Assembly (NCBI GenBank): GCA_900543475.1
Contig: UQRU01000013.1
Span: 1 to 31,922, forward strand
DNA length: 31,922 nt
Reading direction: 5' to 3'
DNA from: an uncultured Eubacteriales bacterium
GTDB taxonomy: Bacteria > Bacillota > Clostridia > Christensenellales > CAG-138
Under the pieces are notes generated by a model, which had not been told where the DNA came from, ran no database searches, and saw nothing but the letters and a program-made list of their open reading frames with translations. Of the stretch, positions 8,924 through 31,649 are shown piece after piece (position 1 is the stretch's first letter; each line of letters opens with the position of its first letter). The translations under genes were made by a program, and so were the position numbers.

Positions 8924-8927
8924 GGGA

Positions 8928-8956
8928 AAATATTCAGGCTCCAGCCCGCATACCAT
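8928..8956 (+). promoter_or_regulatory. SigE-like sporulation promoter for yqfC
   Basis: AAATATT (8928-8934), a 14-base spacer and CATACCAT (8949-8956) closely match the Bacillus mother-cell SigE consensus (ATA-containing -35, 13-15 bases, CATACA-T). It lies 23 bases before the yqfC start. Bacillus yqfD is a known SigE-dependent gene. A very similar arrangement precedes spoIIID at 19926-19954. Confidence 0.65.
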
Positions 8957-8978
8957 ATCAAGTATGGGGGCTTTTATT

Positions 8979-9269: not shown

Positions 9270-9326
9270 TGGTGAACAAACTGTAAAAAGCGGCCAGGCG
9301 CCATCCGGCAGAGGGGAGGAAGCGGC

Positions 9327-10469: not shown

Positions 10470-10477
10470 ACAAGCGT

Positions 10478-11494: not shown

Positions 11495-11512
11495 AGGGAA
11501 GGGAGGCCTACC

Positions 11513-13636: not shown

Positions 13637-14079
13637 TAGAGATATCCATGGAAACGGTTGCTCCCGGCGGCTTGGATGTGGAAGGGGCCATTGGCCGGGC
13701 AGGTCAGTTCGCCTTGGAGCAGGAAGGGCAAGGGGATGCCTGGTTGTCGGTGCAGGTGGTGGACGATGAAGCCATCCGGGTCCTGAATCGGGATTTTCGG
13801 GCTTTGGACCGGCCTACGGACGTGCTGAGCTTCCCCATGGAGGAGGGGGCGCAGATTGCCGCCATCCCGGACGGGTTCCTGGGGGATATTGTGATCTCTT
13901 TGGATAAAGCCTTGGCCCAGGCTATGGAGTACGGCCATTCCCCGGTGCGGGAGTTGAGCTTTTTGACGGTACATGGGGTATTGCACCTGTTGGGCTATGA
14001 CCATATGGAGCCGGAGGACGCTGCCCAAATGTATAGTAGGCAAGAGGAGATCCTGGAGAAGATGGGAGTATTGCGATGA
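13633..14079 (+). CDS. ybeY: Endoribonuclease YbeY
   Basis: This 148-residue metalloenzyme is needed for 16S rRNA 3'-end maturation and ribosome quality control. The zinc motif is complete: HGVLHLLGYDH with His114, His118 and His124. The family sequence LNRDFRALDRPTDVLSFPM lies near residues 50-70, and GDIVIS is present before the motif. It overlaps both neighbours by four bases (pgpH and cdd), so translation is coupled. In Bacillus dgkA lies between ybeY and cdd, and it is absent here. Confidence 0.97.
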   Translation: MIEISMETVAPGGLDVEGAIGRAGQFALEQEGQGDAWLSVQVVDDEAIRVLNRDFRALDRPTDVLSFPMEEGAQIAAIPDGFLGDIVISLDKALAQAMEYGHSPVRELSFLTVHGVLHLLGYDHMEPEDAAQMYSRQEEILEKMGVLR

Positions 14080-14489
14080 GCGGCATACACGAATTTGAAG
14101 CGAGAAGCATGGTGCGCATGGCCACTGAGGCAAGGAGTCGGGCCTATGTCCCCTATTCCAAATTCCGGGTGGGGGCTTGCTTGAAGGCCAGCAGCGGGGC
14201 CTACTATATGGGTTGCAACATCGAAAACGCATCCTATAGCCCCACCAATTGCGCGGAGCGCACCGCCATGTTTAAGGCGGTATACGAGGGGGAACGGCGT
14301 TTTGACGCCCTGGCCATTATATGGGATGGGGAGGGGTATGCAGTGCCTTGCGGGGTATGCCGGCAGGTGCTGGCGGAGTTTTGCCACCCCCAGATGCCGG
14401 TGGTGTGCGCCAATAAGGACGGGGAATATACCATCTACACCCTGGAACAGCTGTTGCCGGCGGCCTTTACGGCGGGGGATATGGGATGA
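14076..14489 (+). CDS. cdd: Cytidine deaminase
   Basis: This 137-residue homotetrameric-type cytidine deaminase turns cytidine and deoxycytidine into uridine forms for pyrimidine salvage. The zinc ligands are seen in NCAERTAMF (Cys59, catalytic Glu61) and PCGVCRQVLAEF (Cys92, Cys95). YVPYSKFRVGACLKA is the substrate-binding N-terminal motif. It starts inside the ybeY stop and ends inside the era start, both as ATGA overlaps. Confidence 0.97.
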   Translation: MSGIHEFEARSMVRMATEARSRAYVPYSKFRVGACLKASSGAYYMGCNIENASYSPTNCAERTAMFKAVYEGERRFDALAIIWDGEGYAVPCGVCRQVLAEFCHPQMPVVCANKDGEYTIYTLEQLLPAAFTAGDMG

Positions 14490-15373
14490 GCTATCGGTCG
14501 GGGTTCATATCCATCATCGGCTCCCCCAACGTGGGGAAAAGCACCCTGATGAACCAGATGATCGGGCAAAAGGTGTCCATCGTGTCCCAGCGGGCCCAAA
14601 CTACCCGGAACCGGGTGATGGGGGTGCTGACCCGGCCGGGACGGCAGATGGTCTTTTTGGACACGCCCGGGGTGACCACGCCGAAAAACCGCCTGGGGGA
14701 ATATATGTGCAAGGTGGCCTTCGACGCCCTGAACGAGGTGGAGGCCATTCTCTTTGTGGCGGACGCCAGCCGGGGGATCGGGCCCAAGGACGAGACGTTG
14801 CTGGGCCGGCTGAAAGAGGCCAAGGCGCCGGTGGTGGCTGCCATCAATAAGGCGGACCTGTGCACCCTGGATCAGATCGAGACGGCTCGGGAACGGCTGG
14901 AAGGGGAAGGGTTTTTACAGGGCATGGTGAAGCTGTCCGCCTTGGAAGGCCGGGGCTTGGATCAGCTGGAAGCCATGCTGACGGGGTATCTTGTGGAGGG
15001 CCCCCAGTATTTCCCCGACGACATGGTGACGGATCAGCCGGAACGGGTGCTTTGCGGGGAGATTATACGGGAAAAAGCCCTGGAGCTGCTCCGGGAGGAA
15101 GTCCCCCACGGCCTGGGGGTAAGTATGGATAAGATCGAAGCCCGGCCAGACGGGGTACAGGATATTTGGGCCACCATCTATTGCGAGCGGGCCGGCCATA
15201 AGGGCATCATCATCGGCAAAGGCGGGGCCATGCTCAAACGGATCGGCTCCGAGGCCCGCAAGGATATGGAATGGTTGCTGGGCAGCCGGGTGAACCTACA
15301 GCTGTGGGTGAAGGTGAAGGAGGACTGGCGCAACAACCCCAGCTTCCTGGGGGAGCTGGGCTACGAAGGATAG
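14486..15373 (+). CDS. era: GTPase Era
   Basis: This 295-residue protein is the essential GTPase that binds the 3' end of 16S rRNA during 30S assembly. The G domain has G1 GSPNVGKST (about 12-20), G3 DTPG (about 58-61) and G4 NKAD (about 123-126). The C-terminal KH domain has its signature in GKGGAMLKRIG (about 248-258). The length is standard. It ends the ATGA-coupled chain pgpH-ybeY-cdd-era. Of its 18 isoleucine codons only 2 are ATA by hand count, which typifies the left part of the window. Confidence 0.97.
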   Translation: MSYRSGFISIIGSPNVGKSTLMNQMIGQKVSIVSQRAQTTRNRVMGVLTRPGRQMVFLDTPGVTTPKNRLGEYMCKVAFDALNEVEAILFVADASRGIGPKDETLLGRLKEAKAPVVAAINKADLCTLDQIETARERLEGEGFLQGMVKLSALEGRGLDQLEAMLTGYLVEGPQYFPDDMVTDQPERVLCGEIIREKALELLREEVPHGLGVSMDKIEARPDGVQDIWATIYCERAGHKGIIIGKGGAMLKRIGSEARKDMEWLLGSRVNLQLWVKVKEDWRNNPSFLGELGYEG

Positions 15374-15398
15374 GGGCCCGGACGGTCGGGCGCATAGA

Positions 15399-15597
15399 CA
15401 GGCTGTCGAAAAAGTGGCTTGCGCCACTTTTTCGAGGTGTGCATAGCTCCCTTGCGCCTACGGCGCGGCCAGGGAGCTATGCAAGGAAACCCTTGCTACG
15501 CAAGGCTTTTTGCGGATTTGACGCGCATGTCGCCAAATCCGATCAAAGCCTCCGGGGGCTGCGGCCCCCGAACCCCCGGGGGTTTTTCGACAGGCTG
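15399..15597 (+). repeat. TIR repeat element, copy 1 (~199 bp)
   Basis: This is a non-coding element bounded by CAGGCTGTCGAAAAA (left) and the inverted form TTTTTCGACAGGCTG (right), which match at 14 of 15 positions. Blocks inside it are shared in the opposite orientation with the element at 19634-19836. These include CTTGCGCCTACGGCGCGGCC, CCTTGCTACGCAAG, a GCGGATTTG...CATGTCGCCAAATCCGA pair and GGGGGCTGCGGCCCCC. No transposase is encoded, so it is MITE-like. It lies 25 bases after era. Unlike copies 2 and 3 it has no matching hairpin on both sides, so it may be older or rearranged. Confidence 0.8.
15409..15432 (+). terminator. Terminator hairpin inside repeat copy 1
   Basis: AAAAAGTGGC and GCCACTTTTT form a perfect 10-base stem around TTGC. 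As it stands just after era it probably ends that operon, and the A tract makes it work on the opposite strand too. Confidence 0.75.
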
Positions 15598-15599
15598 AG

Positions 15600-15622
15600 A
15601 AAAGTGGCCCAAGGCCACTTTT
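15600..15622 (+). terminator. Second terminator-like hairpin after repeat copy 1
   Basis: AAAAGTGGCC (15600-15609) and GGCCACTTTT (15613-15622) form a 10-base stem with a CAA loop, directly next to the right end of the element. It could be the original era terminator or a partial copy of the element's own terminal hairpin, which it resembles. Confidence 0.6.
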
Positions 15623-15755
15623 CCCTATGGGGCTGGCGGGCGACCGCGCTAAGGGAGCCGCTGCAGATATGCCAGCAGGGCGCCCGGCAACCCTTTTCAG
15701 GCTGGGTTCGCACCGTCCGGTATCGGGCAAGCGGCGGGCGCTTCCGGACCGCCCG

Positions 15756-15899
15756 CTAGGGGCGTTCCCCGCCTGGGGCGGGAGATGGGCCCTGGGGCAA
15801 ACGGGCCCGGGCTTGGGCTTGGCGATATGCCAGGTAGTCCGCTGGGGCGCCGGTTTTGGCAAAGCGGGCCCAAGCGGTGACAACAGGGGATTGGGGCAT
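15756..15899 (-). CDS. Small YqzL-like protein, inverted relative to recO
   Basis: This encodes 47 residues. The segment VVTAWARFAKTGAPADYLAY follows the pattern of YqzL, the tiny protein encoded between era and recO in Bacillus (W..F..TG....YL.Y). The start at 15899 has a near-perfect ribosome site, AAAGGAGATC at 15905-15914, which is the main reason to believe the gene. A longer frame up to 15986 is possible but has no such site. The odd feature is orientation: it reads against its neighbours, whereas yqzL in Bacillus is collinear with them. The C-terminal 15 residues are Pro/Gly-rich. Function is unknown. Confidence 0.55.
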   Translation of the reverse strand: MPQSPVVTAWARFAKTGAPADYLAYRQAQARARLPQGPSPAPGGERP

Positions 15900-16016
15900 G
15901 GCTGGATCTCCTTTCCCAAAGAGGCGGATCAGTCCGCCCAGGTTATTTTCAGTATCGGTGGGAAGGCAGGGGAACATGCCAAGCAATCCCTGACAAAAAT
16001 GGAAAGGAGGAAGGCT

Positions 16017-16748
16017 ATGCCCACATGGACCTTGACAGGCATCGTGTTGCGCTATGCCAATTACCGGGACAGCGACCGGATCCTTACCATTTTGACCCGG
16101 GAACGGGGCAAGCTTTCCGCCGCTGCCCGGGGATGCCGGAAACCAAATTCCCGGCTTTTTGGCTGTAGCGAGCTCTTCACCTATGGGGAATATGTGCTCT
16201 TTGAAGGGAAGGGCAAGATGACCGTGGATAATTGCGACGTGCGGGAACGGTTCTACCCTTTGCGGGAGGATGTGGGCCGGTTTGCCGCTGGGGCGTATAT
16301 GCTCTCCGTGGCTGATGCCATTACAGCCCCCGGCCAGCCCAATGAAGGGCTGTTTGGCCTACTGTATTACGCCCTTAGCTATGCCGCCTACAAGGAACAA
16401 AACCCCACGGACCTGGCCATCTGCTTCCTGGCCCGGTGCCTGGCCTTACAGGGCTATGCCCCCAGGCTCACCCATTGCGCCCGCTGTGGGCAAGACCTGC
16501 GGCACTTGAACCAATTGTCCTTTTCCCCCCGGGCCGGCGGGGCGGTGTGCATGGATTGCCGGGACGGGGATAGCCTGGACATCAGCCCCCTGGCCTTGGA
16601 AGCGGTGCGCCGGATGCTCCTGCTCTCCAACCAGGATATGGACCGGGTGGTGCTGCCGGAGGCGGTGCGCAGCCAGCTCAAAACGGCTTTGCACGCCTAC
16701 GGGGAATACGTTTTGGAGCGGCCTTTTCGGGCTATGGAACAGCTATAA
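16017..16748 (+). CDS. recO: DNA repair protein RecO
   Basis: This 243-residue recombination mediator works with RecF/RecR to load RecA at gaps. An N-terminal OB fold starts WTLTGIVLRYANYRDSDRIL. A helical domain follows. The zinc motif is CARCG (about residues 158-162) and CMDC (about 179-182), giving four Cys as usual. The start at 16017 has AGGAGG a few bases ahead. The frame stays open upstream to 15627, but that part is GC-rich filler that overlaps the YqzL-like gene antisense. It is the last gene showing the CGG-rich codon habit of the left part. Confidence 0.93.
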   Translation: MPTWTLTGIVLRYANYRDSDRILTILTRERGKLSAAARGCRKPNSRLFGCSELFTYGEYVLFEGKGKMTVDNCDVRERFYPLREDVGRFAAGAYMLSVADAITAPGQPNEGLFGLLYYALSYAAYKEQNPTDLAICFLARCLALQGYAPRLTHCARCGQDLRHLNQLSFSPRAGGAVCMDCRDGDSLDISPLALEAVRRMLLLSNQDMDRVVLPEAVRSQLKTALHAYGEYVLERPFRAMEQL

Positions 16749-16854
16749 GCTGAAATAATACCTATCTGGGAAAGCACGTGCAATTCTCGAATCATTTAAT
16801 CTTGTTATAAAGAAATAGAATGCAGGGAATGCTGCAAAATAATGCCCCAACCGG

Positions 16855-16882
16855 TTGAATATTTTCGGTGGTATGTTATAAT
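16855..16882 (+). promoter_or_regulatory. SigA-type promoter of ppdK
   Basis: TTGAAT (16855-16860), a 16-base spacer and consensus TATAAT (16877-16882) lie in the AT-rich gap after recO. The leader to the ATG at 16969 is about 80 bases and carries AGGAGG at 16956-16961. The region 16749-16850 holds no gene that I can see and is where base composition changes. Confidence 0.7.
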
Positions 16883-16968
16883 TAGGAAGCCACAAGAAAT
16901 TGGGGCTTTATCGCTTTCTGCAGGCTTACAAACAAATTTATATATCATTTACAGCAGGAGGACAAACC

Positions 16969-19599
16969 ATGGCAAAAAAGTACGTATACCTTTTTAGCGA
17001 AGGCAACGCCCAGATGCGTGAGCTGTTGGGCGGCAAGGGCGCAAACCTGGCCGAGATGACCGGCTTGGGTCTGCCTGTTCCTCCGGGATTTACCGTGACT
17101 ACCGAAGCCTGCACTCAGTACTATGAGGACGGCAAGTGGATCAACGAAGATATCGTAGCCGAGATATTCGAATACCTCGGAAAGCTGGAGAAGATCACCG
17201 GCAAGAAGTTCGGCGACAGTGAGAATCCCCTGCTGGTATCCGTCCGCTCCGGCGCCAGGGCCTCTATGCCCGGCATGATGGATACCATACTTAATCTGGG
17301 CCTCAATGAGCAGGTGGTAGAGGTGATAGCAAAGAAGTCCAACAACCCCCGCTGGGCATGGGACTGCTACCGCCGCTTCATCCAGATGTATTCCGACGTA
17401 GTTATGGAGGTTGGCAAAAAGTACTTTGAGCAGCTCATAGATAAGCTCAAGGCAGAGCGCGGAGTCACCATGGACACCGAGCTCACGGCTGATGACCTCA
17501 AGACCCTTGCCCATCAGTTCAAGGGCGAATACAAGAAGAAGATAGGTAAGGATTTCCCCGACGATCCCAAGGATCAGCTCCTCTATGCCATAAAGGCCGT
17601 ATTCCGCAGCTGGGATAATCCCCGTGCCAACGTATACCGCAGGGATAACGACATACCTTACTCCTGGGGCACCGCTGTAAACGTACAGATGATGGCATTC
17701 GGTAACATGGGTGATGACTGCGGCACAGGCGTTGCATTCACCCGCAACCCCGCCACCGGCGAAAAGAAGCTGTTTGGCGAGTTCCTGACCAACGCTCAGG
17801 GCGAGGACGTTGTGGCCGGTGTCCGTACTCCTATGCCCATCAGCGAGATGGCGGAGAAGTTCCCCAAGGCATTTGCACAGTTTGAAGATGTTTGCAATAT
17901 ACTTGAAAAGCACTACCGCGACATGCAGGATATGGAGTTCACCGTAGAGAACCAGAAGCTCTACATGCTCCAGACCCGCAACGGCAAGCGTACCGCCTCC
18001 GCCGCACTGAAGATCGCCTGCGATCTGGTGGACGAGGGCATGATAAGCGAGCAGGAAGCTGTGGCCATGATAGAGCCCCGCACCCTTGATACTCTGCTCC
18101 ATCCCCAGTTTGACGCCGCAGCGGCCAAGAAGGCAGAAGTCATAGGTAAGGCTCTTGGCGCATCTCCCGGCGCTGCTTCCGGCAAGATCGTATTCACTGC
18201 CGAAGATGCAAAGGCTGAGGCCGCAAAGGGTGAGAAGGTTGTACTGGTACGTCTTGAGACCAGCCCCGAGGACATAGAAGGCATGAAGGCCGCACAGGGC
18301 ATACTGACCGTGCGCGGCGGCATGACCAGCCACGCTGCGGTAGTAGCCCGCGGAATGGGCAAGTGCTGCGTATCTGGCTGCTCTGCCATCACCATGGACG
18401 AAGCAAACAAGTGCTTTACCCTCTCTGGCAAGACCTATCACGAGGGTGATTGGATAAGCTTCGACGGTTCCAACGGCAACGTATACGACGGCGTTATTCC
18501 CACTGTTGACGCTTCCATAAGCGGCGAGTTCGGCCGCATCATGGGCTGGGCGGACAAGTACCGCAAGCTCAGCGTGCGCACCAACGCCGATACTCCTCAC
18601 GATGCTAAGAAGGCCCGCGAACTGGGTGCAGAGGGCATCGGTCTCTGCCGCACCGAGCATATGTTCTTTGAGGGCGACCGCATCGAGGCTATCCGCGAGA
18701 TGATTTGCTCCGATACCGTTCAGGAGCGCGAGACTGCTCTTGCAAAGCTGCTGCCCATGCAGCAGAGCGACTTCGAGGGCATATATGAGGCAATGGAAGG
18801 CTACCCTGTAACCATTCGCTTCCTGGATCCTCCGCTTCACGAGTTTGTTCCCACAGAGGAAGCAGACATTGAGCAGCTTGCAAGGGCGCAGGGCAAGACC
18901 GTTGAGCAGATAAAGGGCATTATTGCCGGTCTCCACGAGTTCAACCCCATGATGGGTCATCGCGGCTGCCGCCTGTCCGTTACCTTCCCCGAGATCGCTG
19001 CGATGCAGACCCGCGCGGTCATTCGCGCAGCCATCAACGTGCAGAAGAAGCATCCCGACTGGAACCTGGTACCTGAGATAATGATTCCTCTCATAGGCGA
19101 TGCGAAGGAGCTTGCATACGTCAAGGCGATCGTCACCAAGACCGCCAACGAAGAGATGGAAAAGGCCGATTTCAAGCTGGACTACAAGGTCGGCACCATG
19201 ATAGAGATCCCCCGCGCGGCGCTTACTGCCGATGAGATCGCAAAGGAAGCCGAGTTCTTCTCCTTCGGTACCAACGACCTGACTCAGATGACCTTCGGCT
19301 TCAGCCGTGACGACGCGGGCAAGTTCCTGAACGCCTATTACGACAAGAAGATCTACGAGAACGATCCCTTTGCCAAGCTCGACCAGAAGGGCGTTGGCAA
19401 GCTGGTAAAAATGGCCGCCAAGATGGGCCGTGAAACCCGTTTCGACATTCACATGGGAATATGCGGCGAGCACGGCGGAGATCCTTCCAGCATCGAGTTC
19501 TGCCATAAGGTAGGTCTGGACTACGTATCATGCTCCCCCTTCCGCGTACCTATAGCTCGCCTTGCGGCAGCTCAGGCTGCCATCAAGGAAAACAAGTAA
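16969..19599 (+). CDS. ppdK: Pyruvate, phosphate dikinase
   Basis: This 876-residue enzyme interconverts PEP, AMP and PPi with pyruvate, ATP and Pi, and is common in PPi-based glycolysis of Clostridia. The ATP-grasp domain starts at GGKGANLAEM. The phosphohistidine domain has GGMTSHAAVVARGMG with His455, the same number as in the C. symbiosum enzyme. The TIM-barrel domain carries the metal ligand region and GICGEHGGDP with the catalytic Cys832. Length is typical. The start follows AGGAGG. Codon choice is highly biased to CGC and AAG, as in strongly expressed genes, and ATA appears often. The gene often lies near recO/glyQS in Clostridia. A terminator hairpin follows. Confidence 0.98.
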   Translation: MAKKYVYLFSEGNAQMRELLGGKGANLAEMTGLGLPVPPGFTVTTEACTQYYEDGKWINEDIVAEIFEYLGKLEKITGKKFGDSENPLLVSVRSGARASMPGMMDTILNLGLNEQVVEVIAKKSNNPRWAWDCYRRFIQMYSDVVMEVGKKYFEQLIDKLKAERGVTMDTELTADDLKTLAHQFKGEYKKKIGKDFPDDPKDQLLYAIKAVFRSWDNPRANVYRRDNDIPYSWGTAVNVQMMAFGNMGDDCGTGVAFTRNPATGEKKLFGEFLTNAQGEDVVAGVRTPMPISEMAEKFPKAFAQFEDVCNILEKHYRDMQDMEFTVENQKLYMLQTRNGKRTASAALKIACDLVDEGMISEQEAVAMIEPRTLDTLLHPQFDAAAAKKAEVIGKALGASPGAASGKIVFTAEDAKAEAAKGEKVVLVRLETSPEDIEGMKAAQGILTVRGGMTSHAAVVARGMGKCCVSGCSAITMDEANKCFTLSGKTYHEGDWISFDGSNGNVYDGVIPTVDASISGEFGRIMGWADKYRKLSVRTNADTPHDAKKARELGAEGIGLCRTEHMFFEGDRIEAIREMICSDTVQERETALAKLLPMQQSDFEGIYEAMEGYPVTIRFLDPPLHEFVPTEEADIEQLARAQGKTVEQIKGIIAGLHEFNPMMGHRGCRLSVTFPEIAAMQTRAVIRAAINVQKKHPDWNLVPEIMIPLIGDAKELAYVKAIVTKTANEEMEKADFKLDYKVGTMIEIPRAALTADEIAKEAEFFSFGTNDLTQMTFGFSRDDAGKFLNAYYDKKIYENDPFAKLDQKGVGKLVKMAAKMGRETRFDIHMGICGEHGGDPSSIEFCHKVGLDYVSCSPFRVPIARLAAAQAAIKENK

Positions 19600-19613
19600 T
19601 GCAGTAAATTTAA

Positions 19614-19633
19614 AGAAGGCCGTAAGGCCTTCT
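19614..19633 (+). repeat. Left copy of duplicated terminator hairpin (20 bp)
   Basis: AGAAGGCCGTAAGGCCTTCT is a palindromic stem-loop 14 bases after the ppdK stop, with a GTAA-type loop. An identical copy sits at 19837-19856 on the other side of repeat copy 2. The left copy lacks the T run, which stayed with the right copy, so the original terminator was split by the insertion. Confidence 0.9.
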
Positions 19634-19836
19634 CAGTCTGTCGAAAAACCCCGGGGTTGATAAGGGGCCGCAGCCCCTTATGGCTTTATTCGGATTTGGC
19701 GACATGTGCGGCAAATCCGCAAAAGGCGCTTGCGTAGCAAGGCTTTCCCTGCATGAGGTGCTGGCCGCGCCATAGGCGCAAGCACCGAATGAGAAAACTC
19801 AAAAAAGTGGCGTTTTGCCACTTTTTTGACACTCTG
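19634..19836 (-). repeat. TIR repeat element, copy 2 (~203 bp)
   Basis: It is bounded by CAGTCTGTCGAAAAA and, inverted, CAGAGTGTCAAAAAA (12 of 15 match). It is the same family as copy 1 in opposite orientation. Inside are GGGGCCGCAGCCCC, the pair GGATTTGGCGACATG / GGCAAATCCGC, CTTGCGTAGCAAG, GGCCGCGCCATAGGCGCAAG and a terminal AAAAAAGTGGC/GCCACTTTTTT hairpin (about 19801-19827). There is no open reading frame of substance. The element is flanked by perfect 20-bp hairpin duplications, so it entered the ppdK terminator. Confidence 0.88.
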
Positions 19837-19860
19837 AGAAGGCCGTAAGGCCTTCTTTTA
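19837..19860 (+). terminator. ppdK terminator, right copy of duplicated hairpin
   Basis: This is the same 20-base stem-loop as at 19614-19633, followed by TTTA. Joined to the sequence before 19634 it gives a normal Rho-independent terminator for ppdK, which supports the idea that the intervening element was inserted. Confidence 0.85.
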
Positions 19861-19925
19861 GTATGCCGAAAAAGTAAAACATATCAAAAACAACGGGCGG
19901 CGATGCATTCCATTTGACTGCAAAA

Positions 19926-19954
19926 AATAATTGCAGCCCTGTCCCGCATACATG
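19926..19954 (+). promoter_or_regulatory. SigE-like promoter for spoIIID
   Basis: AATAATT (19926-19932), a 14-base spacer and CATACATG (19947-19954) resemble the SigE consensus and have the same spacing as the yqfC promoter. It lies 49 bases before the spoIIID start. Bacillus spoIIID is transcribed by SigE. Confidence 0.5.
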
Positions 19955-20003
19955 GCGTATGCCGCTCATAAGCTTTACCAAAGCATATTGGGGGTAAGGC
20001 TAA

Positions 20004-20306
20004 ATGTACGAATATATAGAGGACAGGGTATTGGAAGTTGCGAATTATATAGTCGAGAGCGGAGCTACAGTACGACAGGCCGCAAAGAAGTTCGGTATAA
20101 GCAAGTCTACAGTTCACAAGGATATGAGTGAGCGTCTCAGGTATATCGACCCCAATGTGGCGGAGCAGGTACGCGAAGTGCTGCAAAAAAACAAGGACGA
20201 GCGGCATATGCGCGGCGGCATGGCTACATATATGAAATACAAGGAAAAAAGAGAGAAAAAGGCCGCGTTGACAGGAATGGGAAAAAATGATAAAGTCCTA
20301 ATGTGA
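20004..20306 (+). CDS. spoIIID: Sporulation transcriptional regulator SpoIIID
   Basis: This 100-residue DNA-binding protein controls many mother-cell genes after SigE activation. The family core is obvious: YIVESGATVRQAAKKFGISK with STVHKDMSERL forming the helix-turn-helix (about residues 14-48), then INP-like YIDPNVAEQV and RHMRGGMATYMKYK near 70-85. The basic C-terminal tail needed for DNA binding in Bacillus is present (KEKREKKAA). GGGGGTAAGG precedes the ATG. Three of its four isoleucine codons are ATA. Confidence 0.97.
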   Translation: MYEYIEDRVLEVANYIVESGATVRQAAKKFGISKSTVHKDMSERLRYIDPNVAEQVREVLQKNKDERHMRGGMATYMKYKEKREKKAALTGMGKNDKVLM

Positions 20307-20362
20307 TATATTAAGATACATGATAACAGGGCGATTCGCCCGGATACGAGGCCGTAATCTGA

Positions 20363-20806
20363 ATGATGCTTGAAAAAATGCTAAAGACCTTTCAAAAGCT
20401 GAGACTGGAATTCTATCGCAAAATATTTACCCGAGTAAGGGAAAGAGATGGGAGCCTCAGTGCCATGGAGGTTTTTTCGCTTGAGATAATATACGCTCTG
20501 GGCAGACCAACAATAGGACAATTTGCCCGGTTCATAGGAATATCCCAGTCGAACGCCACATATAAGGTCAATTCTCTCATGAAAAAGGGATATATAATAC
20601 GGCAGCCCTCGCAAGAGGACGGCAGGGAATACAACCTTGAGCTTTCCGAGAAGTTCTACGGTTACAGCGACATGCTGGAGGAAAATGTAAGGACCATAAC
20701 ACGGAACGTTCTGGAGCAGCTCACGCCGGAGGAGATAGCAGTGATAGACAAGGCGGCGGATATACTCAATAAAGAACTTGATGCCAGGGCGGGCTTAAGA
20801 GATTAA
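20363..20806 (+). CDS. MarR-like winged-helix regulator
   Basis: This 147-residue protein has a predicted winged helix: LSAMEVFSLEIIYALGRP, then TIGQFARFIGISQSNATYKVNSLMKKGYI (recognition helix region, about residues 52-80), the wing RQPSQEDGREYNLELSE, and a long C-terminal dimerisation helix (NVRTITRNVLEQLTPEEIAVIDK). This is the MarR/SarA plan. No ligand or target is evident. The ribosome site is weak (GAGG about 12 bases ahead), and a second ATG follows at 20366. It converges on the minus-strand gene at 21071 across repeat copy 3. Confidence 0.82.
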   Translation: MMLEKMLKTFQKLRLEFYRKIFTRVRERDGSLSAMEVFSLEIIYALGRPTIGQFARFIGISQSNATYKVNSLMKKGYIIRQPSQEDGREYNLELSEKFYGYSDMLEENVRTITRNVLEQLTPEEIAVIDKAADILNKELDARAGLRD

Positions 20807-20810
20807 TAAT

Positions 20811-20833
20811 AAGCCGGGAAATATTCCCGGCTT
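20811..20833 (+). repeat. Left copy of a second duplicated terminator hairpin (23 bp)
   Basis: This is a palindromic stem-loop with arms AAGCCGGGAA and TTCCCGGCTT, 4 bases after the MarR-like gene. It is repeated perfectly at 21033-21055. Its sequence is unrelated to the hairpin that flanks copy 2. Confidence 0.9.
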
Positions 20834-21032
20834 CAGTCTGTCAAAAAACCCCAGGGATGATAAGGGGCCGCAGCCCCTTATGTTTAATCCGGCTCTGACG
20901 ACATGTGCGTCAGAACGGATGAAAACCCAGAGGTTTTCGTACTTTGCGGATTTTGCCGCCCGGGAGCGAATGCGAGAGGCAAAACCCGTAAAACTCAAAA
21001 AAGTGGCATTCAGCCACTTTTTTGACACTCTG
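20834..21032 (-). repeat. TIR repeat element, copy 3 (~199 bp)
   Basis: It is bounded by CAGTCTGTCAAAAAA and, inverted, CAGAGTGTCAAAAAA (13 of 15 match). It shares both end regions with copy 2, including GATAAGGGGCCGCAGCCCCT and the AAAAAAGTGGC/GCCACTTTTTT terminal hairpin. The centre differs: a GACGACATGTGCGTC core and GGTTTTCGTACTTTGCGGATT-type sequence replace the copy 2 middle. It sits between two perfect copies of a 23-bp terminator stem-loop. It has no coding capacity. Confidence 0.88.
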
Positions 21033-21055
21033 AAGCCGGGAAATATTCCCGGCTT
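21033..21055. terminator. Bidirectional terminator, right copy of the 23-bp hairpin
   Basis: This stem-loop is followed by TTTG on the plus strand and lies 15 bases from the stop of the converging minus-strand gene. Before the insertion it would have served both the MarR-like gene and the 21071-21919 gene. The element's own A/T-flanked hairpin at about 21000-21023 now adds a second bidirectional terminator. Confidence 0.7.
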
Positions 21056-21070
21056 TTGCGCGCTTAAAGA

Positions 21071-21919
21071 TCAGCTTTGGCCAGAAGCTCTGTATACAAG
21101 CTCCTGATGCTCGGCATCTGGCAGCGAGCCTACGTGGGAAAGGCTGCCGTCAAAGTAAAGGCAGATATGTCCGTTCATGTCGTTGGAAGGTATGGTATCG
21201 CTGCCGTGGGGCCAGCCCTGAAGCGATGCGGCTATCTGCTTGCCGTTTATGGTGACGGTCACGGCTCGCTTTGAAAAATTGAACTCACCGCCGAACACCT
21301 CTCTCACAGCGGCGGAGCTTTGGGAATCTCTGACCTCCATCTCGGCGTGGTTTTCACCGCTTGCATATTGGAGGTAGAAGGTGGAGCCGGTATTGTAATC
21401 GGTAACGAGATAGGAACTGCCCACGGACAGGGCAGCCTTCACATCGCTCCATACCATGGCCTCGCCTTTTACGGCGCCGTCCTTTACCTGGCTGGTGCCT
21501 ATGGGTATATTGGCCGCTATATCGGCTCTGCTCACACCGTGGCGAAAGAGTATGGTCATGGTCTGGTCGCCTATGGTACCGTCTGATATCATGGGCGCGC
21601 CGTCATCGGTGGTGTGCTTGAGCTGGAAGGCCTTTGCCGCATTGGCGGTCATGCTCTGGTAAATTCCGGTGGGCTTGAAATTGAAGTAGCAGAGATCCCG
21701 CAGGCGTATCTGCACACGCACCACGTCGTCTCCGGAATAGTTCATGCCGATAAGGCCGGAAAAGGCGGGCACGTTGCCGGAATAAGGCGTTATGGCCGGG
21801 TTTGGAGCAGGCGTGGGCGAGGGCGTAACGTCCGGAGCCGGTGAGGGCGACGCCGCATTGGCCGCTGCCGCCGCAAACAGCACACATATTGTAAGTATAA
21901 ATACCGTCAGCTTTTTCAT
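21071..21919 (-). CDS. Secreted peptidoglycan-binding protein with unnamed C-terminal domain
   Basis: This encodes 282 residues. A signal peptide (1-22, ending AAAAANA) is followed by a Pro/Ser/Thr linker (23-50) and a PG_binding_1-like helical domain (about 58-130; VVRVQIRLRDLCYF and GTIGDQTMTILF). The C-terminal 130 residues are homologous to those of the protein at 26430-27566, with shared TDxxTG, HA(E/D)xE, VTxNGKxxAAS, PH, and GHxCxx...S..H...HQ. Where the paralogue has GHFCIH this one has GHICLY, so one His is lost. A longer frame to 22012 exists, but the start at 21919 begins the signal peptide. It has no ribosome site. An extended -10 box ends six bases before the ATG, suggesting a leaderless transcript. 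It follows yunB by 52 bases. Confidence 0.75.
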   Translation of the reverse strand: MKKLTVFILTICVLFAAAAANAASPSPAPDVTPSPTPAPNPAITPYSGNVPAFSGLIGMNYSGDDVVRVQIRLRDLCYFNFKPTGIYQSMTANAAKAFQLKHTTDDGAPMISDGTIGDQTMTILFRHGVSRADIAANIPIGTSQVKDGAVKGEAMVWSDVKAALSVGSSYLVTDYNTGSTFYLQYASGENHAEMEVRDSQSSAAVREVFGGEFNFSKRAVTVTINGKQIAASLQGWPHGSDTIPSNDMNGHICLYFDGSLSHVGSLPDAEHQELVYRASGQS

Positions 21920-21925
21920 GGCACA

Positions 21926-21934
21926 ATTATACCA
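21926..21934 (-). promoter_or_regulatory. Extended -10 promoter predicting a leaderless mRNA
   Basis: On the minus strand TGGTATAAT (an extended -10, TGnTATAAT) ends six bases before the ATG of the 21919 gene. Normal spacing puts the first transcribed base at or within a base or two of the A of ATG. No good -35 box was found, as is usual for extended -10 promoters. Confidence 0.55.
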
Positions 21935-21971
21935 TGGGCAAGTCCCGTGCGCCATATGTGTAAATGTAAAA

Positions 21972-22670
21972 TCAATCCAGCGGTTCTGTGGGTATAAGGT
22001 TGAGCATATCATCTGTGCTCTCTACGTTGGTGTATACCTGCGGAACCTCGCCTACGATTATGCTTTCGGCTATGGCCGCCTCGGAGCTTACCTTTATGCT
22101 CCGGGATATGCCGGGCATAATAAGCCGTATGCTTGCGGTGAGCCTTAGGTTTACCCTGTACAGGGACTGGTTTATGCCTGAGGAGGAAAGAGTGGAGCAG
22201 AACTCGCTGTATACGCTGCCTGCGGGGGTGAAGGTGACCCTTATGCGGGGGCCGCGGCCGGTAAGGTAGGTTATCCCGGACACGGTGCCCAGAGGCAAGG
22301 ATACGCCCTGCTCCCCGACTTCTGCTATGCGTTTTTGTGCTGCGGCACAGCACTCGGATGCCAGCAGATTCATGCGTCTTGCGTCAGCCTGGAGCATATA
22401 GACTTTTTCGCCGTTGTCATATGAGGTTATGAGGCAGTCATAGTCTGAGCCGCTGTTGAGGCTTTCGGTTATAGCCTGATTCATGGCTTCCGTGGCAATG
22501 GAATTTATGCGGGTCTCCGCAAGGTTTGCGAGGGCGGGACGCATACTGTTGTTTACGGATATGATGAGCCATACTATGCCAACGGCAGCCAGCATTGCAA
22601 GGGCGAGGCAGAGCTTTCTTATGTATGGTTTCCTGCGCTTCCTCGAAGATATATCTCCACAGTTTTCCAT
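21972..22670 (-). CDS. yunB: Sporulation protein YunB
   Basis: This 232-residue protein has one N-terminal transmembrane helix (about 18-38) after a basic start. Family signatures are RINSIATEAMNQAI (near 55-68), VYMLQADARRMNLLASE, LPLGTVSGI and the C-terminal VNLRLTASIRLIMP and VPQVYTN. YunB is made in the mother cell under SigE in Bacillus and is needed for normal spore development, though its mechanism is unknown. AAAAGGAGC precedes the ATG at a normal distance. A CATATAAT sequence (minus strand, 22732-22739) could be a sporulation-type -10, but I see no matching -35. Confidence 0.92.
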   Translation of the reverse strand: MENCGDISSRKRRKPYIRKLCLALAMLAAVGIVWLIISVNNSMRPALANLAETRINSIATEAMNQAITESLNSGSDYDCLITSYDNGEKVYMLQADARRMNLLASECCAAAQKRIAEVGEQGVSLPLGTVSGITYLTGRGPRIRVTFTPAGSVYSEFCSTLSSSGINQSLYRVNLRLTASIRLIMPGISRSIKVSSEAAIAESIIVGEVPQVYTNVESTDDMLNLIPTEPLD

Positions 22671-22753
22671 GTTGCCGCTCCTTTTGAAATTTGTCCTTCG
22701 ACATAAAAAGTCATGAACTGATTGTTAATTCATTATATGCCGGCCGTGGCGTA

Positions 22754-22783
22754 TTGAGAAAGGACAGTAAAATATGCTATAAT
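22754..22783 (+). promoter_or_regulatory. SigA-type promoter of the penicillin-binding protein gene
   Basis: TTGAGA (22754-22759), an 18-base spacer ending in TGC and consensus TATAAT (22778-22783) form a -35 plus extended -10 promoter. The leader to the ATG at 22857 is about 67 bases and has a GGCCCATGGGCC palindrome (22814-22825). It is divergent from yunB. Confidence 0.75.
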
Positions 22784-22856
22784 ACACCCAAATATAATGA
22801 AGATAGCAGCGCTTGGCCCATGGGCCGGGCCGTTTTATGAAAGGCAAACGATATAA

Positions 22857-25823
22857 ATGGACGATTTCGAGAATAAGGACAGGGGCTTTGACGGGGCGGA
22901 GCAGGAAGGCGGCACCACCCGTATAGATATGCCGAGGCGGCACAGGCGGGAGGAAGCGCCCGAGGACGCGCCGGAGCGGGAAAAGCGGGACGTGGCGGGC
23001 CGGATAGAGTCCGTCATAAATAAAATTAAGGAGCTGCTTGGCCGCAAAAGTGAAAAGCAGGTGGACGAGGAGCTGTTTACCGAGCGCAGAGGCAGCCGCA
23101 GCTTTATTCTGGAGCTGCTGTTTACCGTACTCAAGGTCATGGCGGTGACCGTAATTATCGCCGGAAGCGCGGGGCTGGGTCTCGTTACCGGTGTAGCCAA
23201 GGCATACATCGAGACTACCGAGGACATAGATCCTGCACAGCTCACCAAGAGCGACAGGACTTCCTACATATACGACAAGGACGGCAAGCTCATAACCACT
23301 TACGCCGGCATGGAATATCGGGACTGGGCGGATATAGGCGAGATACCGGATATGCTCAAGAATGCCCTGATTTCCATAGAGGACGTGCGCTTCTACAAGC
23401 ATGACGGCGTGGACTACAAGAGGCTGTTTTCCGCCGTTATAAATACCCTGCGCAATACCGATACCCACGGCGGCAGCACAATAACCCAGCAGCTTATAAA
23501 GAATAAGGTGCTTTCCAACGAGCAGTCCTACAAGCGCAAGATAAAGGAAGCTTACCTTTCCATGGAGCTCGAGGATATCATGGATAAGGATGAGATACTT
23601 GCGGCGTACATGAACGACGTATACCTGGGCGCCTCCAACTACGGCTTTAAGACCGCCGCCAAGGACTATTTCGGCAAGGAGATGAGCGAGCTTACCATAC
23701 GCGAGTGCGCCATGCTCGCCGGAATGGTGCAAAAGCCCTACTATACCAACCCGCGCTCCAATACCTATACGAGGACGCTGAGCGACTCTGCGCGGCAGGA
23801 GCTGGAGGAGCTGCATAATTCCAAGGGCATAACCGAGGAGCAGTATAAGTACTCCCTCGAAAATAACAACCAGATGTACGTCACCGACAGACGCACCAAT
23901 GTGGTGCTGCTGGCCATGTACGAGGGCGGCTTCATAACCCATGAGCAGTACGAGGCTGCGCTGAACGAGAGGGTGAACATAAAGGAAAAATCCGCCAGCA
24001 CAGAATTGTACGATATGCCCTATTTCGTCGAATACGGCATTCGTGACATAGTTACGCATCTTCTCAAGCAGCGGGATATGCTGGATACGCGCGCCAATCG
24101 TTCCGCAATAGAGAATGAGCTGCGCACAGGCGGATACCATATTTATCTCACTGTGGATACGGAGATGCAGCACATGGTGCAGGATAAGCTCTCCACCTGG
24201 GAGAAATATCCACAGCTTGCAGACCCCAGCACGGCCACAAAGACAGAGACCAGCGCCGATGGCAACACCATAACTACTATCGAGCCTCAGGCAGCGGCTG
24301 TGGTGCTCGATTACCACACCGGCGAGCTTAGGGCCATAGTAGGCGGAAGGGACACCCCCACCATAAAAAAGGGACTTAACAGGGCGCAGAGCCCATCGGA
24401 GGTAGGTTCATCCATAAAGCCTCTGGCGGTATACGGGCCGGCGCTGGATATGGGTGCTTCCCCGGCTACCATAATTAAAAATTTCCCCTGCCCGATCGAG
24501 GGATGGGACAGCGAAAAGGGCTACCCCTACATAGGCAGTGAAAGTTACATAGGCCCTCTGACGCTCAGGCAGGGCGTGGTGAATTCCCTCAACGTGGCGG
24601 CGGCGAGGACGCTTCTTGAACACGTGGGCTTTGACAACAGCGCAAATTATCTTGAGCTGCTGGGAGTAGATCCGTCACGCATATCGAAGACGGGCTCCGC
24701 CATGGCGCTGGGCACCACGAACATAACCCCCATAGAGATGGCGGCGGCATACGGAGCGATAGCAAACGGGGGCGAGTATCAGGAACCGTTGTCCTTTACG
24801 AGGATAGTGGACGAAAGCGGCAAGGTCATACTCGACGCTGACGAGATAAGGGAAAAGCATACCGTATTTAAGAAGTCAACGGCTTATATGCTGGTGGATA
24901 TACTCACAGAGGCGGTAAACTCCGGCACTGGTACCAACGCGAAAATATCCGGCATGACAGTGGCGGGCAAGACCGGTACCAACTCGGATTACGGCAGCGT
25001 GTACTTTGCAGGTATGACCCCCTACTATACAGCTACCGTATGGATAGGCCACGATGACTTTACGCCAAAGCTCAAGAGCAAGTCCACAGGCGGCAAATAC
25101 GCGGCGCCCCTGTGGAAGACCTTTATGTCAAAGATACATGAGGGCTTGCAGAATAAACCCATAATCGATGAGTCTCCCAATGAGATAGGGCTTGAAAAGT
25201 GCACCGTCTGCTCCATATCCGGCAAGCTGGCCACCGACGCCTGCTATGCCGACTCCGCAGGGCATCTTCCAGTGACGGACTGGTTCGCAAAGGACGCGGC
25301 GCCTGCCGAGGTATGCGATATGCATGTACAGACCAGTATATGCCAGGATAGCGGCCAGCTTGCATCGCCCTATTGTTATAATGTTATATCGGGCTCTGTG
25401 GTGCTGATACACAATGACTCAATGTATGCGGACATTGATCCCATATTGGTCAAACAGTACATACCAAATGCCGTTTATACCGGCGTTACCTCCGAGGAGT
25501 ACGCAATGACGATGGAGGGTGGAAGTATGGGAGCGACCTGCTCGCTGCATACGCCTTCGTGGTATAACTACGGCGGAGGCAACGAGGATCTGCAAAATGC
25601 CAAACAGGAGGCACAGCGGCTCATAAGGGAGATAGGGAACTACCTGAACAACGTTCAGAATATCTCGGATACGGACAGGAATACCCTCATACAGGGAATG
25701 CAGGATCTCGAGGATTACGTGAACGCCTCACTTACCGAATATATTAAGCGGGCTACTGAGCAGCTGCGGCTCAACTTCAATGCCATATACGAGGAAAACC
25801 CGCCCGTAGGCGCAGGGTGGTAA
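22857..25823 (+). CDS. Class A penicillin-binding protein (glycosyltransferase/transpeptidase)
   Basis: This 988-residue bifunctional enzyme polymerises and cross-links peptidoglycan. A charged cytoplasmic tail (1-80) precedes one transmembrane helix (about 84-112). The GT51 domain has SIEDVRFYKHDGVD (catalytic Glu) and GGSTITQQ (about 205-212), followed by KIKEAYLSMELE. The transpeptidase has SSIK (Ser518), SLN (about 579) and KTGTN (Lys705). The tail after ~760 has seven Cys, with KCTVC and SPYC-type pairs, then a coiled-coil end (about 905-985). Cys-rich tails of this sort occur in Clostridial PBPs. The ribosome site is weak. It is followed after one base by the glycosylase gene. Length is at the upper end for PBP1a. 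Confidence 0.96.
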   Translation: MDDFENKDRGFDGAEQEGGTTRIDMPRRHRREEAPEDAPEREKRDVAGRIESVINKIKELLGRKSEKQVDEELFTERRGSRSFILELLFTVLKVMAVTVIIAGSAGLGLVTGVAKAYIETTEDIDPAQLTKSDRTSYIYDKDGKLITTYAGMEYRDWADIGEIPDMLKNALISIEDVRFYKHDGVDYKRLFSAVINTLRNTDTHGGSTITQQLIKNKVLSNEQSYKRKIKEAYLSMELEDIMDKDEILAAYMNDVYLGASNYGFKTAAKDYFGKEMSELTIRECAMLAGMVQKPYYTNPRSNTYTRTLSDSARQELEELHNSKGITEEQYKYSLENNNQMYVTDRRTNVVLLAMYEGGFITHEQYEAALNERVNIKEKSASTELYDMPYFVEYGIRDIVTHLLKQRDMLDTRANRSAIENELRTGGYHIYLTVDTEMQHMVQDKLSTWEKYPQLADPSTATKTETSADGNTITTIEPQAAAVVLDYHTGELRAIVGGRDTPTIKKGLNRAQSPSEVGSSIKPLAVYGPALDMGASPATIIKNFPCPIEGWDSEKGYPYIGSESYIGPLTLRQGVVNSLNVAAARTLLEHVGFDNSANYLELLGVDPSRISKTGSAMALGTTNITPIEMAAAYGAIANGGEYQEPLSFTRIVDESGKVILDADEIREKHTVFKKSTAYMLVDILTEAVNSGTGTNAKISGMTVAGKTGTNSDYGSVYFAGMTPYYTATVWIGHDDFTPKLKSKSTGGKYAAPLWKTFMSKIHEGLQNKPIIDESPNEIGLEKCTVCSISGKLATDACYADSAGHLPVTDWFAKDAAPAEVCDMHVQTSICQDSGQLASPYCYNVISGSVVLIHNDSMYADIDPILVKQYIPNAVYTGVTSEEYAMTMEGGSMGATCSLHTPSWYNYGGGNEDLQNAKQEAQRLIREIGNYLNNVQNISDTDRNTLIQGMQDLEDYVNASLTEYIKRATEQLRLNFNAIYEENPPVGAGW

Positions 25824-25824
25824 T

Positions 25825-26433
25825 ATGGGCCTTGTTGAGCTTTACGAAAAAGAGCGGCTGCGCATAGCTGAAACAGCCGACGGCCGTGGTGATTATTCCC
25901 ACCCGGTATTCGGGGAGGGGCCGGTGAACCCGCTGGTGATGCTGATAGGCGAGGCGCCCGGAGGAGACGAGGCAAAGCAGGGGCGGCCGTTTGTAGGTAA
26001 AGCGGGCAAGCAGCTCGATGCGCTTTTAAGCGGCGCAGGTATATACAGAAGCCGGGTGTATATTACCAATACCGTAAAGTTCCGCCCTGTGAATGTAAAG
26101 CCTAAGAGCGTATCAAACCGTACCCCCACGGGCGCGGAACTGAAAGCGGGGCTGCCGCTGCTTAAAAGCGAACTTTGCCTGCTTTCGCCGCGCATAATAG
26201 TTACCCTCGGCAATACTCCCCTTAAAGCCGTTTTAACGCTGGCGGGCGAGCGGATACGCACTGTCGGGGAACTGCACGGCAGAAGCATAAGCGTGACCAT
26301 AGAAGGAAAAGGAATGCTGCTTTCGCCACAGTATCATCCCGCAAGCGTGATTTACAACCGTGCACTGGCTGATACGCTGGCGGAGGATATAGGGCGGCTG
26401 GGGGAAATGATAAGAGCGGAGGAGGAACGATGA
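25825..26433 (+). CDS. Family-4-like uracil-DNA glycosylase lacking the Fe-S cysteines
   Basis: This 202-residue protein has the superfamily motifs GEAPGGDEAKQGRPFVGKAG (motif 1, about residues 43-62) and HPASVIYN (motif 2, about 170-177), along with YITNTVKFRP. Family 4 enzymes hold a 4Fe-4S cluster with four Cys, two near the N-terminus, one in VKCRP and one in a later helix. Here the only Cys in the whole protein is in SELCLLSP, and the VKCRP position is Phe, so no cluster can form. It may still remove uracil, as other UDG families need no cluster. Ten of 12 isoleucine codons are ATA by hand count. It is tightly packed between the PBP and the SH3-domain gene (ATGA overlap). Confidence 0.82.
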   Translation: MGLVELYEKERLRIAETADGRGDYSHPVFGEGPVNPLVMLIGEAPGGDEAKQGRPFVGKAGKQLDALLSGAGIYRSRVYITNTVKFRPVNVKPKSVSNRTPTGAELKAGLPLLKSELCLLSPRIIVTLGNTPLKAVLTLAGERIRTVGELHGRSISVTIEGKGMLLSPQYHPASVIYNRALADTLAEDIGRLGEMIRAEEER

Positions 26434-27566: not shown

Positions 27567-27587
27567 AAACAGCATAATTTAATCTGA

Positions 27588-27626
27588 ATATCCCCTGAGG
27601 GCGCGCCGCGTTCTCAGGGGATATTT
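27588..27626. terminator. Strong 12-bp terminator hairpin
   Basis: ATATCCCCTGAG (27588-27599) and CTCAGGGGATAT (27613-27624) form a perfect stem with a 13-base loop. The T run is short. It ends the PBP-glycosylase-SH3 operon before the germination genes. Confidence 0.75.
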
Positions 27627-27704
27627 GCCTGTATTGCATATTTTTGTCCCCTATGGCAGATACTTCTATATATATCGCAGAAGTTTTGCATGGGAGGGCA
27701 GGGT

Positions 27705-31638: not shown

Positions 31639-31649
31639 AGGGAAAAACT

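What the first reader, a model, noticed from the sequence alone, without database searches (positions are those of the whole stretch)
19614..21055. Small TIR elements inserted in terminator hairpins, with the whole hairpin duplicated
Seen directly: two ~200-bp elements with related ends (CAGTCTGTC...GACACTCTG) each sit between two perfect copies of a stem-loop. Around 19634-19836 the duplicate is 20 bp (AGAAGGCCGTAAGGCCTTCT). Around 20834-21032 it is a 23-bp stem-loop of unrelated sequence. Removing element plus one copy restores a normal Rho-independent terminator in both cases. The duplication length follows the hairpin length rather than a fixed number. That suggests recognition of structure, not sequence, unlike ordinary transposase target duplications. 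The element brings its own bidirectional terminator (AAAAAAGTGGC/GCCACTTTTTT), which would keep the host genes properly ended. Inference: a non-autonomous mobile element specialised for terminators.
Basis: partly seen in the sequence, partly recalled or inferred. Interest (0 to 1): 0.87.

Follow-up and report, generated by a model that had tools for sequence, protein, structure and literature searches.

The report
Mini-transposons that duplicate terminator hairpins
Small gene-less mobile DNA elements in Clostridia, with transposase-carrying relatives, land on hairpins that look like gene terminators and leave a whole copy of the hairpin on each side, so the length of the copied stretch is set by the target's shape rather than being a fixed number.

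Summary
Confirmed and extended. Related elements of about 170-390 bp occur in other Clostridia; 16 of 23 end-pairs lie between duplicated, unrelated hairpins, 6 exactly and 10 with 1-5 mismatches. Autonomous partners exist: one clade of IS1182-family insertion sequences with matching ends duplicates hairpins of 19-35 bp, including named ISEfa7. Genome G552 holds such an IS and seven such MITEs. Two predicted IS empty sites were found at 100% identity with one hairpin: Streptococcus phage Javan90 and 20 listed E. faecium plasmids. So duplication arises on insertion and follows the hairpin. Best explanation: IS1182-type MITEs whose transposase joins both ends at the 5' feet of a target cruciform, a path Wan et al. 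2017 drew as hypothetical while reporting that IS1272, same family, replaces its hairpin. The cruciform step is inferred. Limits: no genome for the window, no partner IS in it, no MITE empty site, several copies without paired hairpins. New variant of a known kind.

The parts
19614..19633 (.). Left copy of the 20-bp target hairpin at element A, the probable ppdK terminator (inference)
   Evidence: 8 perfect pairs, 4-nt loop
19634..19836 (+). Element A: non-autonomous IS1182-type MITE, 203 bp, ends CAGTCTGTCGAAAAA / TTTTTTGACACTCTG
   Evidence: no ORF of 80 aa or more inside
19799..19829 (.). Right-end hairpin of A with A-tract and T-tract, a bidirectional terminator by sequence
   Evidence: arms I6
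19837..19856 (.). Right copy of the 20-bp target hairpin at element A, followed by TTT
20811..20833 (.). Left copy of the 23-bp target hairpin at element B, after the MarR-like gene
   Evidence: 10 perfect pairs, 3-nt loop
20834..21032 (+). Element B: MITE of the same family, 199 bp
20995..21025 (.). Right-end hairpin of B with A-tract and T-tract
   Evidence: arms I7
21033..21055 (.). Right copy of the 23-bp target hairpin at element B, followed by TT
15399..15597 (-). Element C: third MITE of the family, 199 bp, opposite orientation, not in the finding
15598..15623 (.). 26-bp hairpin beside element C; no second copy on the other side (one-sided)
16969..19599 (+). Pyruvate phosphate dikinase gene (ppdK); A lies downstream
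   Evidence: PF01326, PF02896, PF00391
20004..20306 (+). spoIIID-like gene between A and B
   Evidence: PF12116, E 8e-40
20363..20806 (+). MarR-family regulator gene; B lies directly downstream
   Evidence: PF01047

Best explanation
The elements are MITEs (non-autonomous transposons) mobilised by a DDE transposase of one clade of the IS1182 family. Shown by sequence: this clade and its MITEs choose stem-loops of unrelated sequence, terminator-like where checked; in the clean cases they insert exactly at the base of the stem and leave one whole copy of the stem-loop on each side, so the duplication length equals the hairpin length (19-40 bp). Inferred: mobilisation of the MITEs by that transposase; that the enzyme acts on the palindrome extruded as a cruciform; [quoted passage not shown] Repair of the two single-stranded hairpins then gives a duplication of whatever length is extruded. 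Because each side keeps a hairpin, and the element has its own terminal terminator-like hairpin, the upstream gene should stay terminated (inferred).
For: Duplicated hairpins at 16 of 23 MITE end-pairs. IS1182 transposases (NF033551) with like ends: 75 Clostridia copies read, 12 with hairpin duplications of 20-35 bp, all 12 among the 16 copies of one clade; 10 of 16 fetched plasmid/phage copies. Clade of 14 of 63 tree rows, support 99/97; the label needs 3 changes against 10.2 in shuffles, 0 of 500 as low; the 13 plasmid/phage transposases added later all fall in it. Single-hairpin empty sites: 626/626 in phage Javan90 (Javan87 is longer by 1564 = 1538 + 26 bp) and 577/577 in the 20 listed plasmids for ISEfa7. 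Both ends of IS L097 and the left end of element A share the first 15 bases. IS and MITEs co-reside in G552 and G335. Duplication length against stem pairs r = 0.88.
Against: Seven of 23 MITE pairs lack the duplication, window C among them. L094, L162 and L198 carry different hairpins on the two sides and L201 has no duplication. No IS1182 match was found in the MITE-bearing genomes G001-G005, and none is in the window's listed reading frames as I read them. The only IS1182 found in G668, which holds at least one hairpin-flanked MITE, is outside the clade with what looks like a 5-bp duplication. The exact 15-base right end is rare: 3 of 297 genomes of one order. No MITE empty site was obtained. 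Nothing here distinguishes an extruded cruciform from a palindromic duplex.
Confidence: 0.82

Rival explanations
1. The transposase recognises palindromic double-stranded DNA as a bound dimer and makes a wide staggered cut at the two outer edges; no cruciform is extruded.
For: The same end products would result; perfect inverted repeats are also symmetric binding sites. Staggers would have to span 19-40 bp.
Against: Hairpin sequences are unrelated, stems vary from 6 to 17 pairs (L088, scored out of register, left aside), and duplication length tracks the stem. A duplex-binding dimer with one geometry would favour one spacing.
Confidence: 0.2
2. The transposase acts on the hairpin formed in single-stranded DNA (lagging strand, R-loop or transcription bubble) rather than on a cruciform in duplex.
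For: Targets are terminator-like hairpins next to A or T tracts (21 of 21 exact duplications placed by the script; no matched control), where transcription and single-strandedness are likely.
Against: Two ends joined on opposite strands need both strands; a single-stranded hairpin alone does not explain joining at the 5' foot on the second strand without a further step. Replication-strand bias was not tested.
Confidence: 0.12
3. The two hairpins pre-existed in tandem and the element inserted between them, or a composite hairpin-element-hairpin unit moved as one.
For: A few copies have different hairpins on the two sides (L094, L162, L198).
Against: Two IS empty sites carry one hairpin: 626/626 and 577/577. 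Flanking hairpins of different copies are unrelated. Mixed hairpins are expected from recombination between IS copies (not shown).
Confidence: 0.02
4. Each side's hairpin is part of a structured RNA element and the whole is a retroelement or group II intron derivative that targets terminators.
For: The MITE interior has conserved, covarying stems, and bacterial class C introns are known to sit behind terminators (recalled).
Against: No Rfam family reached its gathering score in the window; inverted-repeat ends match a DDE-transposase IS; introns do not leave target duplications (recalled).
Confidence: 0.02

Closest known systems
IS1272 and TnSha1 (IS1182 family, Staphylococcus)
   Same: Same IS family by the papers' own statement; targets are stem-loops of unrelated sequence, often terminators (PMC5678879: abstract, sections 24 and 29 part 1, and passages; PMC4923244: passages).
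   Different: IS1272 replaces the target hairpin and leaves no target duplication (its older copies also sit at non-hairpin sites, per the abstract), and TnSha1 partly deletes it; here the whole hairpin is kept and duplicated. Wan et al. drew duplication only as an alternative pathway b in a model figure. IS1272 was not placed in my tree.
ISEfa7 (IS1182 family, Enterococcus faecium)
   Same: Falls in the same transposase clade; has CAGACTGTAGACAAAG ends and duplicates 20- and 23-bp hairpins in 2 of 4 fetched copies, with a confirmed empty site for one.
   Different: Autonomous, 1536 bp; the window elements are about 200 bp without a gene. Of the other two fetched copies, L201 had no duplication and in L199 the right end was not found.
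IS1549 / IS1634 (IS1634 family)
   Same: Long target duplications of variable length, 8-514 bp, with no published model by 2008 (PMC2266710, passages).
   Different: Another transposase family; hairpin targets are not reported in the passages read. Not compared by sequence here.
RUP, BOX and SPRITE repeats of Streptococcus pneumoniae, and bacterial MITEs in general
   Same: Short non-coding folded repeats of intergenic DNA, SPRITE terminator-like (PMC10969869, passages).
   Different: No duplication of a whole target hairpin is described in the passages read.

Membership tests
IS1182 family (for the autonomous partner) | Transposase matches the IS1182 model above cut-off | tested here: met
   NF033551 over cut-off for the clade members listed (L087-L090, L092-L098, L100, L109)
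IS1182 family (for the autonomous partner) | DDE transposase architecture DUF772 + DDE_Tnp_1 / DDE_Tnp_1_6 | tested here: met
   two members tested, L096 and L165
IS1182 family (for the autonomous partner) | Terminal inverted repeats | tested here: met
   e.g. L097 CAGTCTGTCGAAAAA on both ends
MITE derived from an IS1182-clade element (window A, B, C) | Short, no transposase gene, terminal inverted repeats, multi-copy | tested here: met
   G001 has 55 end matches against 0 for the reversed pattern
MITE derived from an IS1182-clade element (window A, B, C) | Ends match an autonomous IS with the same target behaviour | tested here: met
   15/15 terminal bases shared by A-left and L097, 12/15 by A-right; IS and MITEs with like ends and hairpin duplications in G552 and G335
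MITE derived from an IS1182-clade element (window A, B, C) | Partner transposase present in the same genome as the window elements | not testable with these tools
   no whole genome held for the window
MITE derived from an IS1182-clade element (window A, B, C) | Mobilisation in trans by that transposase | not testable with these tools
   needs an assay
IS1272-type stem-loop replacement | Target hairpin lost on insertion, no target duplication | tested here: not met
   both hairpin copies present at A and B; empty sites with one copy for two partner ISs
IS1634 family | IS1634-type transposase | not tested
   partner transposases match IS1182; no IS1634 model was run

The most novel reading that the evidence does not exclude
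This clade's transposase is a four-way-junction-directed integrase. It synapses with the base of an extruded cruciform, and the target duplication length is set by the extruded arm rather than by protein geometry. Its relative IS1272 performs the mirror reaction at the 3' feet and loses the hairpin. MITEs riding on it form a terminator-to-terminator mobile system that leaves the host gene terminated, hence its high copy number in some genomes.
Probability: 0.5. Interest if true: 0.78.

Novelty: new variant of a known kind. Interest (0 to 1): 0.64.

Why it matters
Target-site duplications are normally a fixed fingerprint of a transposase. Here the fingerprint is set by the target's fold, with a clade, empty sites and MITEs to support it. 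That makes the open question of variable-length duplications, noted without a model for IS1549/IS1634, directly testable with a DDE enzyme, and it gives natural insertion marks that may report where cruciforms or hairpins extrude in living cells. It also suggests a niche: terminators as safe harbours for selfish DNA.

Tried and rejected
Phage and plasmid DNA searches with element A gave no match, nor did a viral contig scan with the right end. Seven of the 14 loci of the genome scan (L001, L002, L005, L006, L011, L012, L014) were judged chance after reading. The exact 15-base right end was found in 3 of 297 genomes of the order of G002; for the four hits outside G002 itself (L023-L026) the repeat search gave no duplicated flank. 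PF01609 in G001-G005 gave one match, in G003; its reading frames were listed but its ends were not examined. The IS1182 of G668 was tested first and does not duplicate hairpins. A 30-nt pattern in 391 genomes gave one hit, an element without a duplication (L028). The motif TTTTTTGACANNCTG with one mismatch is not specific everywhere: against 0 for G001, the reversed-pattern control gave 2 to 20 hits in the other six genomes, where real hits numbered 12 to 59. The E. casseliflavus empty site was not found whole (0 of 5 records at 80% cover), nor that of phage YS387 (0 of 17). Of 30 ppdK orthologue loci, 28 gave readable downstream sequence, and three weak end-like matches (L180, L186, L188) were not taken as elements; at 85% protein identity at best they are too far for a base-by-base empty site and show only, by eye, that many ppdK genes end in one hairpin. 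G719, the closest genome by ppdK, had no match to the end pattern. The hairpin-at-boundary control was lax (12.5% of random positions pass, against 26 of 32 flanks). RNA-element and tandem-hairpin readings are rejected in the rivals. IS1272 itself was not placed in the tree.

Full report
OBSERVATION. Elements A (19634-19836) and B (20834-21032) are each flanked by perfect direct repeats that are themselves hairpins, 20 and 23 bp. The two hairpins are unrelated; the two elements share 94% over a 50-base stretch at the left end and 93% over a 44-base stretch at the right end. A follows a pyruvate phosphate dikinase gene, and B follows a MarR-like gene that lies behind a spoIIID-like gene. Neither element contains an ORF of 80 aa or more. 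A third element, C, lies at 15399-15597 in the opposite orientation. It has a 26-bp hairpin directly beside one end and no second copy. Three elements in 31.9 kb suggest high copy number, but no whole genome is held for the window.

RELATIVES OF THE MITES. A scan of the GTDB species genomes for 18 bases of the right end gave 14 loci. Seven looked like chance on reading. The other seven come from five Clostridia genomes; five loci (L003, L004, L007, L009, L013) show the element between hairpin copies and two (L008, L010) are cut by contig ends. In one of these genomes, G001 (1.9 Mb), the end motif TTTTTTGACANNCTG with up to one mismatch occurs 55 times against 0 for the reversed pattern; since the right end of this subfamily is itself palindromic and matches on both faces, there are fewer elements than matches. 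In six other genomes the same motif gave 12-59 hits against 2-20 reversed-pattern hits, so it is less telling there. Pairing the ends in loci L001-L081 and the window gave 23 distinct element pairs, after merging strands and setting aside one nested pairing in L066. Sixteen have a direct hairpin repeat of 19-40 bp: six exact (A, B, L003, L004, L057, L068) and ten with 1-5 mismatches. Seven do not: L005 (a methanogen, judged chance), L028, L035, L051 (diverged hairpins on both sides), L055 (hairpin on one side), L072 (dubious pairing) and window C. L013 is an additional case, with a 34-bp repeat but a decayed left end. Where contigs break inside the element only one flank can be read; in all, 26 of 32 outer right flanks begin with a hairpin at base 1 or 2, against 12.5% of 40,000 random positions by the same lax criterion.

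AUTONOMOUS PARTNER. IS1182-family transposases (NF033551) occur in 157 of 391 sampled Clostridia genomes, 45 of them with a match above cut-off. I read 75 copies (5, 30, 40 fetched). Twelve have in-register hairpin duplications of 20-35 bp: L087, L088, L089, L090, L092, L093, L095, L096, L097, L109, L117, L118. Two of the twelve are not exact: L088 differs at one base (its reported 28-bp repeat includes four bases next to a 24-bp hairpin), and L109 has its central bases inverted between copies. L117 and L118 are the same IS at two unrelated hairpins; a third copy of it, L094, has different hairpins on its two sides. L098 is a partial case at a contig end. In a tree of 63 distinct transposases the 11 labelled rows (L098 included) lie in a clade of 14 rows (support 99/97); the label needs three changes there, against a mean of 10.2 and none of 500 shuffles as low. 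The three unlabelled rows are L094 (same protein as L117 and L118), L100 (contig edge, not testable) and L141 (no duplication found, long branch). So 12 of the 16 copies in the clade show the full duplication. Among the 49 rows outside, which printed only the best repeat per locus, showed no clear in-register hairpin duplication; L102 has two hairpins with inverted loops, and L129, L132 and L155 have partly self-complementary repeats that I do not count. Several of those loci have short flanks, so this is a weak negative.

PLASMIDS AND PHAGES. Sixteen of the hits were fetched. Ten show the duplication: L158 (Lactococcus, 20 bp), L159 (E. casseliflavus, 19), L160 (Acetoanaerobium noterae, 24), L161 (Sutcliffiella, 30), L163 (Peribacillus, 24), L164 (satellite phage Javan256, 22), L165 (phage Javan87, 26), L166 and L200 (ISEfa7, 20 and 23), L202 (phage YS387, 24). 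Six do not: L157 (end of record), L162 and L198 (a different hairpin on each side), L199 and L203 (an end not found) and L201 (no duplication). Thirteen of these transposases were added to a FastTree tree; all fall in the smallest clade that holds the labelled rows and L094, 26 tips, local support 0.888, midpoint root.

EMPTY SITES. For phage Javan87 the predicted site with one 26-bp hairpin is 626/626 identical to phage Javan90. The two records differ in length by 1564 bp, exactly the 1538-bp IS plus 26. For ISEfa7 on an E. faecium plasmid (L200) the predicted site with one 23-bp hairpin is 577/577 identical in all 20 listed plasmids; 60 of 89 matching records cover at least 80% of it. Two other attempts found no whole empty site. 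These are sites of the autonomous partner clade; no MITE empty site was obtained.

LINK BETWEEN IS AND MITE. The left end of element A, CAGTCTGTCGAAAAA, equals both ends of IS L097 over 15 bases; A's right end matches at 12 of 15. Genome G552 holds the IS L096 (25-bp hairpin duplication) and MITEs of 239-386 bp with similar ends. One search printed 15 pairings for seven genomes' loci; eight pass the duplication test: seven in G552 (L214, L218, L222, L224, L225, L227, L229; repeats 19-34 bp, 0-2 mismatches) and one in G335 (L212, 268 bp, exact 25-bp hairpin). Of the other seven, L205 is the IS itself with its left flank cut off, four are alternative pairings of the same ends in L212, L222 and L227, and L226 and L228 have imperfect hairpins on both sides by eye. 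G335 also holds IS L109. Beside L096 a further copy of the same hairpin lies about 240 bp on, as if one hairpin had been hit twice. Against the link: G001-G005, the first MITE genomes found, have no IS1182 match, perhaps because drafts miss repeats or because the partner is lost.

TARGET. Over 35 duplications (17 MITE, 18 IS; one copy of each taken) length runs from 19 to 40 bp and correlates with stem pairs, r = 0.88; excluding L088, scored out of register, 173 of 102,000 random windows score as well. In 21 exact duplications placed by a script, all 21 have an A-tract before or a T-tract after the hairpin; no matched control was run, and flanks are AT-rich.

MECHANISM. A DDE transposase joins element 3' ends to staggered sites on the two strands, and repair duplicates what lies between (established knowledge). 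[quoted passage not shown] Wan et al. 2017 (PMC5678879; abstract, section 24, part 1 of section 29 and passages) reported that newly inserted IS1272, of the same family, replaces hairpins without target duplication, and drew joining at the 5' feet as an alternative path that would duplicate the whole stem-loop. Furi et al. 2016 (PMC4923244; passages) reported partial hairpin deletion by TnSha1, several targets being terminators. Both cite Siguier et al. 2015, which I did not read, for some IS1182 members targeting palindromes. I also recall, from no call, that reference tables list a wide range of duplication lengths for IS1182. So hairpin targeting in this family is in print. I did not find an account of whole-hairpin duplication as a clade trait, or of MITEs that do it, in ten full-text searches of one open-access library, where most hits were seen only as listings; subscription papers and ISfinder were not searched.

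INTERIOR. Seven MITEs (A, B, C, L004, L007, L009, L045) align over 217 columns with a shared multi-stem fold; 21 of 55 pairs have changes on both sides, and the covariation score is 0.362 against 0.143 shuffled. Element A as RNA folds with z = -4.3. Whether this serves RNA, single-stranded DNA or transposase binding is open; hairpin repair in DNA could also keep arms complementary.

WEAK POINTS. One-sided and mixed-hairpin copies exist; recombination between copies or decay would explain them, but was not shown. Cruciform extrusion is inferred. The MITE-IS relationship is by sequence and co-residence, not by assay.

Noticed in passing
window 15399-15623: A third MITE (C) of the same family, inverted, between era-like and recO-like reading frames (names recalled), with a hairpin directly beside only one end.
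   Followed up: partly
window 19634-19836, 20834-21032, 15399-15597: Conserved, covarying internal stems across seven MITEs from the window and other genomes, with an invariant CGACAT..GCG motif; function unknown.
   Followed up: partly
window 1-16000 versus 16000-31922: GC content falls from about 60% to about 53% near 16 kb; possibly a compositional domain or an assembly join.
   Followed up: no
L102, L109: The two flanking hairpins have reverse-complemented loops or centres relative to each other, as if one had flipped. In L102, outside the clade, the loop letters resemble the ends seen in related ISs of that subgroup.
   Followed up: no
L094, L162, L198: IS copies of the clade with a different hairpin on each side, suggesting recombination between copies.
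   Followed up: no
L096 / L205 (G552): Three copies of one hairpin separated by an IS and a further ~240-bp segment, as if one hairpin had been hit twice.
   Followed up: partly
L082-L086 (G668): Five copies of an IS1182 outside the clade, apparently with 5-bp duplications (by eye) rather than hairpin duplications, in a genome that also holds at least one hairpin-flanked MITE, L040.
   Followed up: partly
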